From: an uncultured Oscillibacter sp.
Lineage (GTDB): Bacteria; Bacillota; Clostridia; Oscillospirales; Oscillospiraceae
Assembly (NCBI GenBank): GCA_947365245.1
Contig: CANAWG010000002.1
Span: forward strand, 186,001-250,000
DNA: 64,000 nucleotides
Direction: 5' to 3'
Below, piece by piece: positions 4,168-52,679 of this stretch (position 1 is the stretch's first letter; the number at the start of each line of letters is the position of its first letter). The notes beneath the pieces were generated by a model. That model ran no database searches, was not told the DNA's origin, and saw only the letters and a list, made by a program, of their open reading frames with translations. The position numbers were made by a program, and so were the translations under genes.

Positions 4168-4410
4168 TCAGGCCATTCTGGCCACCAGCCGGTCCAGGCT
4201 CCTGGGGCTGACGCTGTCGTCGGCCACCACGTTGACCCGCTTGCCGATCAGGGCGTACAGGCCCAGCAGGGAGCGGGCGTCCAGCATCAGCGTGTCGGTG
4301 CTCAGCCACACCTCATAGGGCGTCTCCAGAGCCAGCTCGTTGATCTTCTCCACCTGATCGCGGTCTTTTATATCAAGTTTCTTAACCATCGGATATTCCT
4401 CCTTTTGCAT
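4168..4410 (-). CDS. HPr-like protein without the GLHARPA phosphorylation motif
   Basis: VEKINELALETPYEVWLSTDTLMLDARSLLGLYALIGKRVNVVADDS resembles the HPr C-terminal half (compare NAKSLLGVLSLGIVKGTSVTLIADG in the HPr at 11515); no active-site His motif. Confidence 0.65.
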   Translation of the reverse strand: MQKEEYPMVKKLDIKDRDQVEKINELALETPYEVWLSTDTLMLDARSLLGLYALIGKRVNVVADDSVSPRSLDRLVARMA

Positions 4411-4602
4411 CCATGGGGTTGGGCCCTGCCTGGAACGCGGCGGAGCACGGCCGCCGCCGTCTCCCCGGGCCAGGCCTCCCGCGGGAGATTGACCATATTT
4501 TAGCAGGGCAGGGAGGAAGTGTCAACGAGGTTTTTGTACAAAGCGACTAAGGTAATCGATTACATATTGTGCAATTTCACAATGGATTGTGCCAAAGGCC
4601 GC

Positions 4603-5520
4603 TCAGCGCCGGGCGGAGAGCTTCCGCAGCTGCTCCAAAAACTCCGGCGGCAGGGGGCAGGAGAGCTCCAGCGTCTCCCCGGTGCGGGGGTGGCGGAACC
4701 GGAGGCCGACGGCGTGGAGGCACTGGCCCTGGAGGCCGGGGACGGCCTTTTTCGCCCCGTAGACCGTGTCCCCCAGGATGGGGTGGCCGATGTGGGCCAT
4801 GTGGACCCGGATCTGGTGGGTGCGGCCCGTCTCCAGGCGGCACCGGAGGTGGGTGAAGCCGGGAAAGCGCTCCAGCACCTCCCAGTGGGTGACGGCGGGG
4901 CGGCCGCCCGCCACCACCGCCATGCGCTTGCGGTCCGTGGGATGACGGCCGATGGGGGCGTCCACGGTGCCCGCGTCCCGGCGGAGGTTTCCGGTGACGA
5001 TGCACTGGTATGTCCGGGCCAGGGTGTGGTCCTGGAGCTGGGCGGCCAGCGCCTGATGGGCGCAGTCGTTCTTGGCGGCGATGATGAGGCCGGAGGTGTC
5101 CCGGTCGATGCGGTGGACGATGCCCGGCCGCAGGGCCCCGCCCACGCCGGAGAGGGAGTCCCCGCAGTGGTAGAGCAGGGCGTTGACCAGCGTGCCGTCG
5201 GGGTGGCCGGGGGCGGGGTGGACCACCAGCCCCTTGGGCTTGTTGACGACGATCACGTCGCCGTCCTCGTACACCACGTCCAGGGGGATGTCCTGGGGAA
5301 GGGCCTCCGCGGTCTCCGGCTCCGGCAGGGAGACCTCCACCGTCTCGCCGCCGGTGAGCAGGTCGCTCTTGCCCAGGGGCTTTCCGCCGCGGGTGACGCG
5401 GCCCTGGGCCAGGAGCCTGGCGGCGGCGGAGCGGGTCAGGCCCTCCACCGCCTCCGCCAGCCACACGTCCGCCCGGCGGCCCGCCTGGGACTCACCGGGG
5501 CGCAGCGTCAGCGTCTCCAT
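4603..5520 (-). CDS. rluD: RluA/RluD family pseudouridine synthase
   Basis: N-terminal S4-like region; GIVHRIDRDTSGLIIAAKN; HQIRVHMAHIGHPILGDTVYG. Confidence 0.93.
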   Translation of the reverse strand: METLTLRPGESQAGRRADVWLAEAVEGLTRSAAARLLAQGRVTRGGKPLGKSDLLTGGETVEVSLPEPETAEALPQDIPLDVVYEDGDVIVVNKPKGLVVHPAPGHPDGTLVNALLYHCGDSLSGVGGALRPGIVHRIDRDTSGLIIAAKNDCAHQALAAQLQDHTLARTYQCIVTGNLRRDAGTVDAPIGRHPTDRKRMAVVAGGRPAVTHWEVLERFPGFTHLRCRLETGRTHQIRVHMAHIGHPILGDTVYGAKKAVPGLQGQCLHAVGLRFRHPRTGETLELSCPLPPEFLEQLRKLSARR

Positions 5521-47151: not shown

Positions 47152-47454
47152 CTATCTGCGGATGCCCCGCCGGGCCGCCTCTTTTCGAAGAAAGTCACAG
47201 AACTCCCCGCAGTTGATCCTGCCGTAGAGCCCCGCCTTTCCCGCCGTCATGTTTTTCTTCAGGCAGTCCGGGACGCCCACACCGCTCTTGAAATGGATCC
47301 GATCCTCGGGGGCCCAGGCGCCCTGCTCCTGGTTGTTCTCGTGGACCCAGAAATCCACATTGGCCGAGGTCAGGATGTAGTCAACGGCGATATCAAGTTC
47401 CGCCTGCGAGTCAAAACTCACCTGATTGTTCCTGCCAAATACGATTTTGCCCAT
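47152..47454 (-). CDS. Small hypothetical protein (third gene of R-M locus)
   Basis: MGKIVFGRNNQVSFDSQAELDIAVDYILTSANVDFWVHENNQEQGAWAPEDRIHFK...; ATG at 47454 with strong SD; same strand, 16 bp after the HNH gene. Confidence 0.65.
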   Translation of the reverse strand: MGKIVFGRNNQVSFDSQAELDIAVDYILTSANVDFWVHENNQEQGAWAPEDRIHFKSGVGVPDCLKKNMTAGKAGLYGRINCGEFCDFLRKEAARRGIRR

Positions 47455-47470
47455 GGATGCACCTCCTTTC

Positions 47471-48694
47471 TCATGAGGTGTAATGCGCGTTGATGGCGTT
47501 GATGACCCCACGGAAGTCCCTGTCCTCGATCTCTGAGAAGCTGTCATCGTCAAAGCCGACGCTCAGCACAAACAGAAGATTGGAAAACTCGTAGATGGTC
47601 TCCGCGGAGGGGCCCGCCAAATTCTCGCGGATCCGCTCCACCTTGGAGAGCAGCAGCAGATGCTGGTATTGCCGGTCGATTTCCTGCGTGCGGCCGCTGG
47701 GGTGGGCGTAGCCGAGGTGCTGGGTGGGCGTGAGGGCCGCCAGGTTCTCCAGATAGGAGCCGATCTCCGGATAGAGGGACTCCGGAAAGATGTGGTGTAC
47801 ATGGATGGCCTGGTCCGCCAGGTGCGCGGGTTCCAGGTGCTCCGTCCGTCCGCCGCGGACCTGGTCGTTGAAGAGCCGGAGATACCGCTTGGCCTTGGCG
47901 GACTGGTAGCGATAGTACGCCTCGTTGACCTCCGCGGGGTGCGCAGCCGCGTACTCTTTCCGTGTGACCCCCTTGGGCTTGTCGGCGTACACGTCCCGGA
48001 AGTTGTTGCGGTTGTACATCAGCATATCGTAGGTGATGATCTGCTGGGACAATCGGCCCTTTTCCGTGCCGCGGGAGTTGTGGAAATACGCCAGCGGATT
48101 GAGCACCTTGATGAAAATACGGTTGCACTCCACAACGCCGTTGATTTTTGTGTGGCGAATGATGAAAGAGGAAAAGGTCTCTTTTGCGGCCCGGTAGCCG
48201 TCCTTGGTCTGGGTTTGGAAGAACGCCTCAAAAGCGGGGTAAATGCCGCTGTCCCGCAGAACCTTCTCGATGTAGGTCCGCAGGAAAAACAGCGCGTTTC
48301 GCTCCCGCAGGGCGATGTACTCCAGGACCTCCATGCTGTTTACCCGGTAAAAATTCTTGTTGCCGTGCTTGCTCTTCAGGAGAACCCCGGCGTTTGCCAG
48401 CATCTCCATGGGCTGCTGGAAAAACTTGTCGTACTCATTTCTGGCGGCGGCGCTCTCAACACCCGGCTTTTTGAAGATGGCCTCCACGTTCTCGACGGTG
48501 TATCGGTTGTGCCAGATCTCGGAGGTGGTGAAGACGCGCTGTCCGTCCGGAAGCGCGCAGCGGCAGATGCAGTCCGCCACCACCGTGACCACATCCGCCG
48601 CGCACTTCTGGTCGATCCACCGCCCGTTTCCGCTCTTGCGGAGGTCGTAGTCAAACCGGCTGCAAAAATTTACGAGGTCCTGCTGCGTCAGCAT
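47471..48694 (-). CDS. HNH-family putative restriction endonuclease
   Basis: IHVHHIFPESLYPEIGSYLENLAALTPTQHLGYAHPSGRTQEID; overlaps the methyltransferase gene by 7 bp. Confidence 0.8.
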   Translation of the reverse strand: MLTQQDLVNFCSRFDYDLRKSGNGRWIDQKCAADVVTVVADCICRCALPDGQRVFTTSEIWHNRYTVENVEAIFKKPGVESAAARNEYDKFFQQPMEMLANAGVLLKSKHGNKNFYRVNSMEVLEYIALRERNALFFLRTYIEKVLRDSGIYPAFEAFFQTQTKDGYRAAKETFSSFIIRHTKINGVVECNRIFIKVLNPLAYFHNSRGTEKGRLSQQIITYDMLMYNRNNFRDVYADKPKGVTRKEYAAAHPAEVNEAYYRYQSAKAKRYLRLFNDQVRGGRTEHLEPAHLADQAIHVHHIFPESLYPEIGSYLENLAALTPTQHLGYAHPSGRTQEIDRQYQHLLLLSKVERIRENLAGPSAETIYEFSNLLFVLSVGFDDDSFSEIEDRDFRGVINAINAHYTS

Positions 48695-51303
48695 TTTTTC
48701 ACCACCTCTTCTGAACCGGAAGGCGCGCGCTGGAGGTTCTCCCGCTCATCCAGTGTCTCCTGGATGGGGGCCGCCTTTTCGTCCTCTCTCAAAAGACCGT
48801 AGAAGAACACCGAGTAGGCGTCCACGTTCAAAGACCGGGTCTGATAATTTCTGGCGGTCTGGTAGAAATCCCGGTACTCCTGGGTGGAGAAATAGGCCAG
48901 CTGCGCCTCCGTGGGGGAGACGCCGTTTTTCGGGATGAGGATGGCCAGAGAGCCGTTGACAAGGGTGCCCGCGGGCTTTCGGATCACCCGCGGCTTGTAG
49001 GTCATGTTGGGGGTGAGATACACGTCGTCCCGCCGCAGGTACTCATACACGGCCAGGGAGGATGCGGCGTCGGGCGATATGTATGCGTCGTATCCCTCAA
49101 TATCCACGATGGCCGTCCCGCTGTCATTGATGTTGCGGGATTTCAGCACTCGAATGCCGCCGGCGGCGGAGAGGAGCTTGTTTGTGATCTGCCGGTCGCG
49201 GAATACCCGGAAGACGTTGAAATCCAACCGCCGGCAGACCTGGTCAAAGGCCTTGTTTCGGTAGATGATCCAGTAGGGGAGCTTTTTGTCGAAGATATAG
49301 CTCTGGGGCTGTACGAGGTGGATGCCGCGGGTTATGGACGCAACGCGGGTGCGGGACGGCCGGCCCTGGAGGTTGATGAGGATGGCGAGAGTCTCCACCA
49401 GCACGCCGGGGAATCCCTTTTCCCCGAAGTCGATGATAGACTCCACCGCCTTTGCCGAGAGGTACTCCCTGGTTTTGGCAAATTCCGGCGTGTTGAGCAG
49501 GAACTTCGGAAAGACCAGGGCGACGTAATTTCCGATGCGCATCGCCTTGTCGAGAAAGAACGAGCAGATATTGGTGGTGTCCTGGTTGACCGCCTCGCCG
49601 CGATAGACGCGCAGCAGAGGATTGGCGGACTTCATTTTGTGAAAGGGGGGGTTGCCGATGACGTAGTCGTACTTCTCCCCAAACTCGTGCAGCAGGAAGT
49701 CGTCTGCGATATAGTTGATCGTGCAGGTGTCGGGGATGTCGTAGCCTGCCAGAATCAGCCTCGCGATCTCCAGGCTGTGGGCGTCGATGTCCACGACGTC
49801 CAAAATCACGTTCCGCCCCTCGAATTTTTTCGCAATGAGAGGGACGAAGTTCCCGACGCCGACGGAGGGCTCCAGAATTCTGACGGTCTTTTGATCCGTG
49901 TCCGGCAGCGCTTTCATCATCTCCGTGATGAGCGCCTTGCCGGTGAAAAAGGCGGCGTGATCGGTGGGGCTCGTGTTGGCCAGCTCCGCGATTTTTCCCA
50001 GGGACGCCGCGGACAGGGACAGGGGGTTCTCGGTGATAAAGCGCTTGAGCGCCTCCGTGTCGGAAAGGCCGCGCTCTTTGACAATCCGATGGATGGCCGC
50101 CCGGTTCAGCGGCGGAGAGGCGGCGGCCCTGGCGATCTTCTTTGCGATGGCCTGGAAAATCGCCGTGGGAACGGCCTCTCCCAGGGACTGCCGGATCTTG
50201 ATCTCCTCTTTTTTCAAGAAAGCGCGCTTTTTCGCGGGGGACAGGCGGTTGAGGGATTCCAGGTCCGCCTCCACCCATTTGAAAGAGCGGGGCACGGTCA
50301 TCATCAGCATCAGCTCCCGGATGCTGAAAACCCGGTCGTCCCTGGGGTGGATGGTATTCTGGCTGGCAAGCTGGTCGTTTCTCGTGTGGATGCAGGGACC
50401 CACCTTGTCCCAGTACTGGCGGCGGTACTTGTCCCCGTTTTTCTGCTGGTTGATGACGATCTTTCCGTTCTTGATCTGATGGGGCTTTTTTTGATCGTCG
50501 CTGTTTTCAAAGGCCGACTGCCCCTCCCGGAGATCGGCGATCCACGCCCGCATGTGCTGGGGGTAGACACGGAAAGAGTGGTAGATGTCGCTCTCGTCAA
50601 TCTCGCCGAACCGGCGCAGGGGCTTGAGATCCCCGATGACCTGGCGGAGCGTCCGCTCCTCCACCGGCGCGGGGTACAGCTCCAGCGGGGAGACCTCGTC
50701 CGCGTAATCTCTGGAGACGCCGATGACCACGGTCCGCTGCCGGCTGGAGCAGGCCCCGTAATTTTTAAAATTGATCACCCGGGAGACATAGGAGTACTCC
50801 GCGCCTAAATTGTTTTCAATGGCCTCCGCGATGGACTTGTTGACGCCGTCCGTGTCCGTGCAGACCGTCTTCATAAAGGCGGGGACGTTTTCAAAGATGA
50901 AAAAGCGGGGGTTGATCCGCTGGATGATCTTGATGGACTCGATGACCAGGGAATTGCGCACAATCTCCGTGGAGCTCTTCTTGTGGTTGGCAACGGACAT
51001 GCCCTGACAGGGCGGAGTTGCGATGACCACGTCGACGCGGGAGAGAGACTCCTCCCGCCGCCACAGATCGATCTGGGCGTACAGCGCGGCCTTGGTCTCG
51101 TCCTTTGCGAGATCCCCGCAGATATATCCGCTCTCGTATTTGCACTTGTGGTTGTACCGCTGAATATCCAGTCTCCTGGGAATCAGCTCGTTTGTCGCCA
51201 CGCAGTCAAAGTGCTCCAGATGAAAGCCGTAGCACCCGATTCCGGCACTGCTGAACAAGCTGATGTATGTGGGCCGCCTGTCTGTGTTCATCTTTTGTAC
51301 CAT
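48688..51303 (-). CDS. Fused DNA C5-cytosine and N6-adenine methyltransferase
   Basis: N-terminal C5-MTase motifs (LFSSAGIGCYGFHLEHFDCVATNEL, VVIATPPCQGMSVANHKK, FFIFENVPAFMKTV); C-terminal N6A-MTase motifs (RILEPSVGVGNFVPLIAKKF, YDYVIGNPPFHKMKS). Confidence 0.92.
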   Translation of the reverse strand: MVQKMNTDRRPTYISLFSSAGIGCYGFHLEHFDCVATNELIPRRLDIQRYNHKCKYESGYICGDLAKDETKAALYAQIDLWRREESLSRVDVVIATPPCQGMSVANHKKSSTEIVRNSLVIESIKIIQRINPRFFIFENVPAFMKTVCTDTDGVNKSIAEAIENNLGAEYSYVSRVINFKNYGACSSRQRTVVIGVSRDYADEVSPLELYPAPVEERTLRQVIGDLKPLRRFGEIDESDIYHSFRVYPQHMRAWIADLREGQSAFENSDDQKKPHQIKNGKIVINQQKNGDKYRRQYWDKVGPCIHTRNDQLASQNTIHPRDDRVFSIRELMLMMTVPRSFKWVEADLESLNRLSPAKKRAFLKKEEIKIRQSLGEAVPTAIFQAIAKKIARAAASPPLNRAAIHRIVKERGLSDTEALKRFITENPLSLSAASLGKIAELANTSPTDHAAFFTGKALITEMMKALPDTDQKTVRILEPSVGVGNFVPLIAKKFEGRNVILDVVDIDAHSLEIARLILAGYDIPDTCTINYIADDFLLHEFGEKYDYVIGNPPFHKMKSANPLLRVYRGEAVNQDTTNICSFFLDKAMRIGNYVALVFPKFLLNTPEFAKTREYLSAKAVESIIDFGEKGFPGVLVETLAILINLQGRPSRTRVASITRGIHLVQPQSYIFDKKLPYWIIYRNKAFDQVCRRLDFNVFRVFRDRQITNKLLSAAGGIRVLKSRNINDSGTAIVDIEGYDAYISPDAASSLAVYEYLRRDDVYLTPNMTYKPRVIRKPAGTLVNGSLAILIPKNGVSPTEAQLAYFSTQEYRDFYQTARNYQTRSLNVDAYSVFFYGLLREDEKAAPIQETLDERENLQRAPSGSEEVVKKC

Positions 51304-51698: not shown

Positions 51699-52679
51699 TC
51701 ACTCCCATTCAATCGTCCCGATGGGCTTGGGCGTCAGGTCGTAGAGCACCCGGCATACCCCCGGCACCTCCGCCAGCACCCGGTCGGTGATGGTCTTCAG
51801 CACCGCGTAGGGGATCTCCGGCACCGTGGCGGTCATGGCGTCTACGGTGTTGACGGCGCGGATGATCACCGGCCAGTCAAAGGCCCGCCTGCCGTCCCGC
51901 ACGCCGGTGGAGCGGAAGTCCGGCACCACGGTGAAAAACTGCCACACCTTGTCCGCGAGGCCCGCCTTGGAGAACTCCTCCCGCAAAATAGCGTCGGACT
52001 CCCGCAGGGCCGCCAGGCGGTCCCGGGTGATGGCCCCCAGGCACCGCACCCCCAGGCCGGGGCCGGGGAAGGGCTGGCGGTCCACCATGGACGCCGGCAG
52101 GCCCAGGGCCCGGCCTACCACCCGGACCTCGTCTTTAAAGAGGAGCTTCACCGGCTCCACCAGCTCGAACTGCATTTCCTCCGGAAGCCCGCCCACGTTG
52201 TGGTGGGCTTTCACGCCGTCGCTCTCCAGGATGTCGGGGTAGATGGTCCCCTGGGCCAGGAAAGAGATGCCCTCCAGCTTCCGCGCCTCCTCGTCAAAGA
52301 CCTTGATAAACTCACCGCCGATGATCTTGCGCTTGCGCTCCGGCTCGTCCACCCCGGCCAGCAGGTCCAGAAAGCGGTCCGTGGCGTCCACATAGATGAG
52401 GTTGGCGTCCATCTGGTTCTGGAAGACCTCGATGACCTGCTCGCTCTCGCCCTTGCGCATGAGGCCGTGGTTCACATGGACGCATACCAGCTGCCTGCCG
52501 ATGGCGCGGATCAGCAGGGCGGCCACCACAGAGGAGTCCACGCCGCCGCTGAGAGCCAGCAGCACTTTCCTGTCCCCCACTTGGGCGCGGACCCTTGCCA
52601 CCTGGTCCGCGATAAAGGCCTCCGCCAGCTCCGGGGTGTTGATCCGCCGCATATCGGCGGGCCGCACATTGTTTTCCAT
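51699..52679 (-). CDS. guaA: GMP synthase ATP-pyrophosphatase (synthetase) subunit, no GATase domain
   Basis: KVLLALSGGVDSSVVAALLIRAIGRQLVCVHVNHGLMRKGE; HHNVGGLPEEM; C-terminal PKPIGTIEWE; ORF begins just upstream of the PPi-loop. Confidence 0.94.
   Translation of the reverse strand: MENNVRPADMRRINTPELAEAFIADQVARVRAQVGDRKVLLALSGGVDSSVVAALLIRAIGRQLVCVHVNHGLMRKGESEQVIEVFQNQMDANLIYVDATDRFLDLLAGVDEPERKRKIIGGEFIKVFDEEARKLEGISFLAQGTIYPDILESDGVKAHHNVGGLPEEMQFELVEPVKLLFKDEVRVVGRALGLPASMVDRQPFPGPGLGVRCLGAITRDRLAALRESDAILREEFSKAGLADKVWQFFTVVPDFRSTGVRDGRRAFDWPVIIRAVNTVDAMTATVPEIPYAVLKTITDRVLAEVPGVCRVLYDLTPKPIGTIEWE

What the first reader, a model, noticed from the sequence alone, without database searches (positions are those of the whole stretch)
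47152..51303. Compact R-M locus: HNH nuclease plus single-chain dual C5/N6A methyltransferase and a third small ORF
Seen: the 871-aa protein has an N-terminal C5-cytosine MTase (PPCQGMS, ENV) and a C-terminal N6-adenine MTase (NPPF). An HNH nuclease gene overlaps it by 7 bp, and a 100-aa ORF follows 16 bp later. Established: type IIS enzymes of the Alw26I/Eco31I/Esp3I group use both C5 and N6A methylation on an asymmetric site and HNH nucleases. Inference: this may be a divergent relative or a new specificity.
Basis: partly seen in the sequence, partly recalled or inferred. Interest (0 to 1): 0.7.

Follow-up and report, generated by a model that had tools for sequence, protein, structure and literature searches.

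The report
HpyAV-type restriction system plus small cassette
A gut Clostridia bacterium carries a known kind of DNA-cutting defence, predicted to recognise the sequence CCTTC (a motif strikingly rare in its own genome), followed by a small, previously unannotated gene family that keeps turning up next to this type of system across distant bacteria.

Summary
On the - strand lie a single-chain C5 + N6A DNA methyltransferase (871 aa), an HNH nuclease (407 aa, 7-bp overlap) and a 100-aa ORF with a strong ribosome-binding site, 16 bp on.

The proposed relatives (Alw26I/Eco31I/Esp3I) are wrong. All tests point to the HpyAV/Hin4II Type IIS family (CCTTC 6/5): full-length profile matches (E 1.5e-282 and 1.4e-130), the same M-then-R order, the same HH-16-N-9-H catalytic spacing, and a conserved presumed recognition region. 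Independent support comes from the host genome. CCTTC is the most depleted of 508 pentamers against same-genus, GC-matched genomes without the system (raw frequency ratio 0.32). All eight flanking contexts are depleted, and the three C-to-T products are the top three of its 15 one-base neighbours. GTCTC is not depleted.

So the R-M pair is a new member of a known kind. The less ordinary part is the third ORF. It belongs to a family with no Pfam, NCBIfam, PHROG or PADLOC match, found almost only beside HpyAV-type nucleases (32 of 87 loci), in swappable subtypes, some fused to an HNH or tudor-like domain. No fold match is significant. Its role is unknown; an auxiliary, non-essential modulator or second effector is most likely.

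The parts
48688..51303 (-). M gene: single-chain C5-cytosine + N6-adenine DNA methyltransferase, 871 aa (possible alternative start at Met5, 51291)
   Evidence: full-length PADLOC match PDLC03277 (residues 7-840 of 871), E 1.5e-282
50131..51267 (-). C5-cytosine methyltransferase domain (residues 13-391): PPCQG 97-101, ENV 138-140, presumed target-recognition region about 241-330
   Evidence: Pfam PF00145 E 3.8e-35; 241-330 highly conserved, 70/53/90% identical per 30-residue block to the H. pylori-like relative L112
48784..50103 (-). N6-adenine methyltransferase domain (residues ~401-840): NPPF 551-554, presumed target-recognition part at the C-terminal end
   Evidence: Pfam Eco57I/N6_Mtase; PADLOC PDLC03382 E 4.4e-118; NPP invariant
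47471..48694 (-). R gene: HNH (beta-beta-alpha metal) restriction endonuclease of the HpyAV/Hin4II family, 407 aa
   Evidence: PADLOC REase_II PDLC03488 E 1.4e-130; family alignment A1
47717..47797 (-). HNH catalytic motif H300-H301-N317-H326 of the nuclease (HHIFPESLYPEIGSYLENLAALTPTQH)
   Evidence: same spacing as HpyAV H294/H295/N311/H320, the residues mutated in PMC2816704; also in L112
48688..48694 (-). 7-bp overlap of the end of M with the start of R (ATG inside M)
47152..47454 (-). Third ORF (here 'P3'), 100 aa; member of an unannotated family linked to HpyAV-type nucleases
   Evidence: no Pfam/NCBIfam/PADLOC/PHROG match
47460..47468 (-). Shine-Dalgarno-like AAGGAGGTG in front of P3
   Evidence: sequence read directly

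Best explanation
This is a complete Type IIS restriction-modification operon of the HpyAV/Hin4II family, M-R-P3. The single methyltransferase chain is predicted to put m5C on CCTTC and m6A on the complementary GAAGG strand. The HNH nuclease is predicted to cut unmodified DNA a few bases downstream (CCTTC 6/5 in HpyAV). Shown: domain make-up, catalytic residues, gene order, family membership, and a genome-wide trace of CCTTC loss with a C-to-T bias. Inferred: methylation and cleavage themselves, the exact cut offset, and that the trace was left by this locus. P3 is most likely a real, translated accessory component of the operon (conserved, with a strong ribosome-binding site), swapped between related systems and not needed for the basic R-M reaction (HpyAV was expressed and characterised from its M and R genes alone). 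I think it most likely tunes or complements restriction, as a DNA- or partner-binding domain. That last step is inference with low confidence, about 0.3.
For: Profiles: M full length E 1.5e-282 (model length 823, the length of M.HpyAV), its halves to 387- and 445-position models (the lengths of M1/M2.Hin4II), R E 1.4e-130 (family facts). HH-N-H spacing as in HpyAV. A Campylobacterales locus that looks like H. pylori (L112) is 57% identical in C5, 45% in N6A, about 38-44% in R. The presumed C5 recognition region is among the best-conserved parts. Published methylomes: M.HpyAV CCTTC m5C + GAAGG m6A (PMC3936762); a locus numbered like a listed HpyAV homologue in Neisseria gives GAAGG m6A (PMC7973814; Table 2 of PMC2816704). 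Host genome, 464 kb: CCTTC O/E 0.49, z -24; rank 1 of 508 against GC-matched congeners; raw ratio 0.32, one-base neighbours 0.68-1.56, all eight flanks 0.22-0.43, the C-to-T products CTTTC 1.56, TCTTC 1.23, CCTTT 1.12 the top three of 15. Most nuclease loci hold both MTase domains next to R.
Against: CCTTC is not depleted in four other genomes that carry relatives (O/E 0.88-1.01), only in the H. pylori-like one (0.57). One congener, G048, shows mild depletion (0.63) without the system. Another C5 MTase-like hit exists in the same genome (G000:C29). No methylome or cleavage assay was possible.
Confidence: 0.9

Rival explanations
1. It is a divergent member of the Alw26I/Eco31I/Esp3I group, recognising GTCTC-like sites.
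For: Same general design (C5 + N6A on an asymmetric site, HNH nuclease); a weak hit of the N6A part to TIGR02987, E 2e-8.
Against: The hit covers about 108 residues and scores 33.4 bits against a cut-off of 353.5, while the HpyAV-like full-length model scores 938 bits. GTCTC O/E in the genome is 0.98; CCTTC 0.49.
Confidence: 0.02
2. Same family but with a shifted specificity (a one-base relative of CCTTC).
For: R is only about 40% identical to the H. pylori-like enzyme; 4 other family hosts show no CCTTC depletion.
Against: The presumed C5 recognition region is well conserved; exactly CCTTC, in all flanks, is depleted, and 13 of the 15 one-base neighbours lie at 0.80 or above (CATTC and CCTTA at 0.68).
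Confidence: 0.06
3. The CCTTC depletion is a quirk of composition or of another, unseen system, and says nothing about this locus.
For: G048 is mildly depleted without the system; another C5 MTase-like gene sits at G000:C29.
Against: Nine other sampled congeners with 28 kb or more show O/E 0.87-1.03, three of them GC-matched; the motif depleted is the one predicted from homology; C-to-T products are raised.
Confidence: 0.15
4. P3 is an ordinary passenger gene that happens to sit downstream.
For: 55 of 87 nuclease loci lack it; HpyAV itself was characterised without one; one orphan copy exists (L158).
Against: Homologues in Clostridia, Lachnospiraceae, Acinetobacter, Psychrobacter, Treponema and others sit beside the same nuclease, and P3-only searches led back to such nucleases: plasmids 2/2, phages 1/1, viral contigs 3/3, most genome hits.
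Confidence: 0.2
5. P3 is a derived LAGLIDADG-like half domain that binds DNA.
For: The Foldseek list of the 100-aa model is dominated by I-DmoI (E 0.65-4, TM about 0.5).
Against: No hit is significant; the longer, better model puts I-DmoI at rank 10 with TM 0.29; no LAGLIDADG Pfam family is among the matches of any member even at E 10; the many I-DmoI entries are one protein.
Confidence: 0.1

Closest known systems
HpyAV R-M system (Helicobacter pylori 26695, hp0053/hp0054; CCTTC 6/5; PMC2816704)
   Same: Single-chain C5 + N6A methyltransferase before an HNH nuclease, same direction; same catalytic residue spacing; the predicted recognition site agrees with the motif lost from the host genome.
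   Different: About 48% (M) and roughly 40% (R) identity to the H. pylori-like locus; a P3 gene follows R here, and none was found in the H. pylori-like locus.
Hin4II (Haemophilus influenzae RFL4, CCTTC)
   Same: Same nuclease family; its M1 and M2 correspond to the two halves of this methyltransferase.
   Different: Two separate methyltransferase genes instead of one.
Alw26I/Eco31I/Esp3I group
   Same: General plan: m5C + m6A protection of an asymmetric site, HNH nuclease (from general knowledge).
   Different: Fails the family's curated N6A model by a wide margin; the genome shows no GTCTC depletion.
Type IV HNH enzymes (EcoKMcrA, ScoMcrA) - only for the P3-HNH variants
   Same: N-terminal extra domain plus C-terminal HNH (L065, L068, L157).
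   Different: P3 has no family match to any reader domain; only the HNH part matches a Type IV model (E 5e-6).

Membership tests
HpyAV/Hin4II Type IIS R-M family | HNH nuclease with HH-16-N-9-H catalytic spacing (H294/H295/N311/H320 in HpyAV) | tested here: met
   H300/H301/N317/H326, invariant in A1; numbers from PMC2816704
HpyAV/Hin4II Type IIS R-M family | C5 and N6A methyltransferase parts with catalytic motifs, fused or paired, upstream of R | tested here: met
HpyAV/Hin4II Type IIS R-M family | Full-length profile similarity of M and R | tested here: met
   PDLC03277 E 1.5e-282, PDLC03488 E 1.4e-130; that these models derive from HpyAV/Hin4II is inferred from their lengths
HpyAV/Hin4II Type IIS R-M family | Specificity CCTTC - indirect trace in host genome | tested here: met
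   CCTTC rank 1 of 508 depleted pentamers against GC-matched congeners; exact motif and flanks; the trace is absent in four other family hosts
HpyAV/Hin4II Type IIS R-M family | m5C at CCTTC, m6A at GAAGG, cleavage 6/5 | not testable with these tools
   needs methylome and purified enzyme
Alw26I/Eco31I/Esp3I family | N6A methyltransferase above the curated cut-off of TIGR02987 | tested here: not met
   33.4 bits against 353.5
Alw26I/Eco31I/Esp3I family | GTCTC-type specificity | tested here: inconclusive
   No GTCTC depletion, O/E 0.98; absence of a trace is not proof
LAGLIDADG (for P3) | LAGLIDADG fold / Pfam match | tested here: inconclusive
   no significant hit

The most novel reading that the evidence does not exclude
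P3 is a new family of R-M accessory domains, a swappable cassette at the end of HpyAV-type operons. It would widen or regulate restriction, for example by recognising modified or hemimethylated target DNA or by binding the nuclease. In its HNH-fused form it would act as a second, Type IV-like nuclease against phages that evade the first by modifying their DNA.
Probability: 0.15. Interest if true: 0.7.

Novelty: new member of a known kind. Interest (0 to 1): 0.4.

Why it matters
The R-M pair itself is ordinary, but it shows the HpyAV family to be far more widespread than the dozen systems listed in 2010 (212 confirmed stretches in one genome scan), and that a restriction specificity can sometimes be read from host-genome composition alone. 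The P3 cassette, if it modulates restriction, would be an overlooked third component of a known Type IIS family, with subtypes exchanged between closely related R-M cores: a possible sign of an arms race, and directly testable in a laboratory strain.

Tried and rejected
Alw26I kinship: rejected by curated score. LAGLIDADG origin of P3: suggested by the first Foldseek list, not supported by the longer model, the viral library or Pfam at E 10; LAGLIDADG_3 hits collected for comparison appeared to be mainly WhiA (my reading of their length and sequence) and were not pursued. No solved structure matches the nuclease or P3 by sequence. CCTTC depletion as a general mark of family hosts: rejected, only two of six sampled hosts show it. 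Literature: no description of P3 was found in the held library, which lacks most subscription papers.
Full report
OBSERVATION. The three ORFs are present as described, on the - strand: M 48688-51303 (871 aa), R 47471-48694 (407 aa, starting inside the last 7 bp of M) and a 100-aa ORF at 47152-47454, 16 bp after R. Pfam finds a C5 DNA methylase over residues 13-391 and an Eco57I/N6_Mtase domain in the C-terminal half. The third ORF has AAGGAGGTG just before its ATG, so translation is plausible. GC of the locus is 0.587 against 0.635 for the window, in keeping with transfer from elsewhere; no nuclease homologue was found in the 60 congeners searched.

WHAT IT IS. The nuclease has no Pfam match, but PADLOC matches it full length as a Type II restriction enzyme (E 1.4e-130), and matches M over residues 7-840 of 871 with an 823-position model (E 1.5e-282); 387- and 445-position models match the two halves. 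These lengths equal those given for M.HpyAV, M1.Hin4II and M2.Hin4II in PMC2816704; that the models stem from these enzymes is my inference. That paper describes HpyAV as an HNH enzyme cutting CCTTC(6/5), with M a single-chain fusion of C5 and N6A methyltransferases upstream of R, and with H294, H295, N311 and H320 as catalytic residues. The window's H300/H301/N317/H326 have the same spacing and are invariant in nine aligned sequences. A Campylobacterales locus (L112) whose gene content looks like H. pylori (my reading) carries the same arrangement with R split into two frames; the window protein is 57% identical in C5, 45% in N6A, and 44% and 38% in the two R pieces.

DISTRIBUTION. One genome scan with the nuclease alignment gave 212 confirmed candidates, of which the best 80 were kept: Clostridia, Lachnospiraceae, Treponema, Acinetobacter, Streptococcus suis, Weissella, Campylobacter and others. 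In most of them the C5 and N6A parts lie directly before R, fused or split; in two (L066, L074) C5, N6A and R appear as one ORF. This sample is biased to sequences near the window's.

SPECIFICITY. In 61 fusion methyltransferases PPCQG, ENV and NPP are invariant, and the presumed C5 recognition region (241-330) is among the best-conserved parts. Published methylomes: M.HpyAV m5C in CCTTC and m6A in GAAGG (PMC3936762); NEIS0295 in Neisseria GAAGG m6A (PMC7973814), which from its locus number I take to be the homologue of the Nme18ORF295P entry at 42% identity to M.HpyAV. A prediction follows: CCTTC. It was tested on composition. In 464 kb of the host genome CCTTC occurs 262 times against 534 expected from a maximal-order Markov model (O/E 0.49, z -24), alike on three contigs; against GC-matched congeners it is the most depleted of 508 pentamers. 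Nine other congeners with 28 kb or more sampled lie at 0.87-1.03; one, G048, at 0.63 without any M or R homologue of note. Raw frequency is 0.32 of the control; each of the eight one-base extensions is depleted (0.22-0.43), the 15 one-base neighbours range from 0.68 to 1.56, and the three C-to-T products are the highest of them, CTTTC most. This fits loss by m5C deamination, by avoidance, or both. GTCTC is normal. Limits: of five other family hosts sampled, only the H. pylori-like genome shows the depletion (0.57; the rest 0.88-1.01), so the trace is not a rule and may depend on residence time and activity. Ratios of overlapping pentamers are not fully independent.

THIRD ORF (P3). Homologues were first seen beside the nuclease in viral and phage contigs and in Acinetobacter and Psychrobacter plasmids at 34-64% identity. 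An iterative profile found the family in 32 of 87 nuclease loci used for a tree. It usually follows R directly, sometimes precedes M (L036, L083) or sits between M and R (L084). Searches with P3 alone led back to such nucleases: three of three viral contigs, two of two plasmids, one phage record, and in genomes the window, G291, G351 (decayed), G636, G637 and G817. Some searches were seeded with P3-bearing genomes, so rates are not prevalence. On the nuclease tree the presence of P3 changes at least 19 times and its subtype at least 25 times; close nucleases carry different subtypes (L015 a, L018 c; L012 b, L013 none). Variants are fused to an HNH domain (L065, L068, L157) or a UvrD tudor-like domain (L021; L095 resembles it). 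No member has a meaningful family match in the P3 part. AlphaFold gives confident models (mean pLDDT 86 and 90), but Foldseek finds nothing significant. HpyAV was characterised without P3, so it is auxiliary at most. A modulator or second effector is my best guess (about 0.3); a passenger is about 0.2.

VERDICT. The R-M pair is a new member of the HpyAV/Hin4II family with strong indirect support for CCTTC. P3 is the part worth further work.

Noticed in passing
window 51699-52679 (-): GMP synthase ATP-pyrophosphatase domain alone (326 aa), without the glutaminase half; a normal-length GuaA-like copy lies at G000:C45 (open frame 520 aa), and near relatives keep a short copy at 90-93% identity.
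   Followed up: partly
L066:2436-6230, L074:272-4015: C5 methyltransferase, N6A methyltransferase and HNH nuclease read as one ORF (about 1250 aa), a possible all-in-one R-M enzyme; assembly error not excluded.
   Followed up: no
L065:6560-7396, L068:6608-7423, L157:1325-2185: P3 domain fused to a C-terminal HNH nuclease, preceded by a further unknown ORF of about 124 aa and in L065 and L068 followed by a second P3.
   Followed up: partly
L096:1425-1748 and 4248-4802: A helix-turn-helix gene (possible controller protein, my reading) just upstream of M, and an extra 184-aa ORF between M and R; a similar-looking 192-aa ORF follows P3 in L007.
   Followed up: no
L095:5016-6260: A second, divergent nuclease of the same family (37% identical to the window's) right after P3.
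   Followed up: no
L158:7143-8651 and L063 downstream of P3: A P3 of subtype c followed by a protein that looks like DUF262/GmrSD (my reading), in L158 without an adjacent R-M.
   Followed up: no
G048 (sampled L190-L197): Mild CCTTC depletion (O/E 0.63) in a congener without this system; cause unknown.
   Followed up: partly
G014, G003, G009 samples (L215-L219, L223-L226): Very strong depletion of other pentamers (CCAGG 0.14 and 0.03; GCAGC, GACTC, GGACC around 0.1-0.2 in G009), hinting at other restriction or methylation systems in this genus.
   Followed up: no
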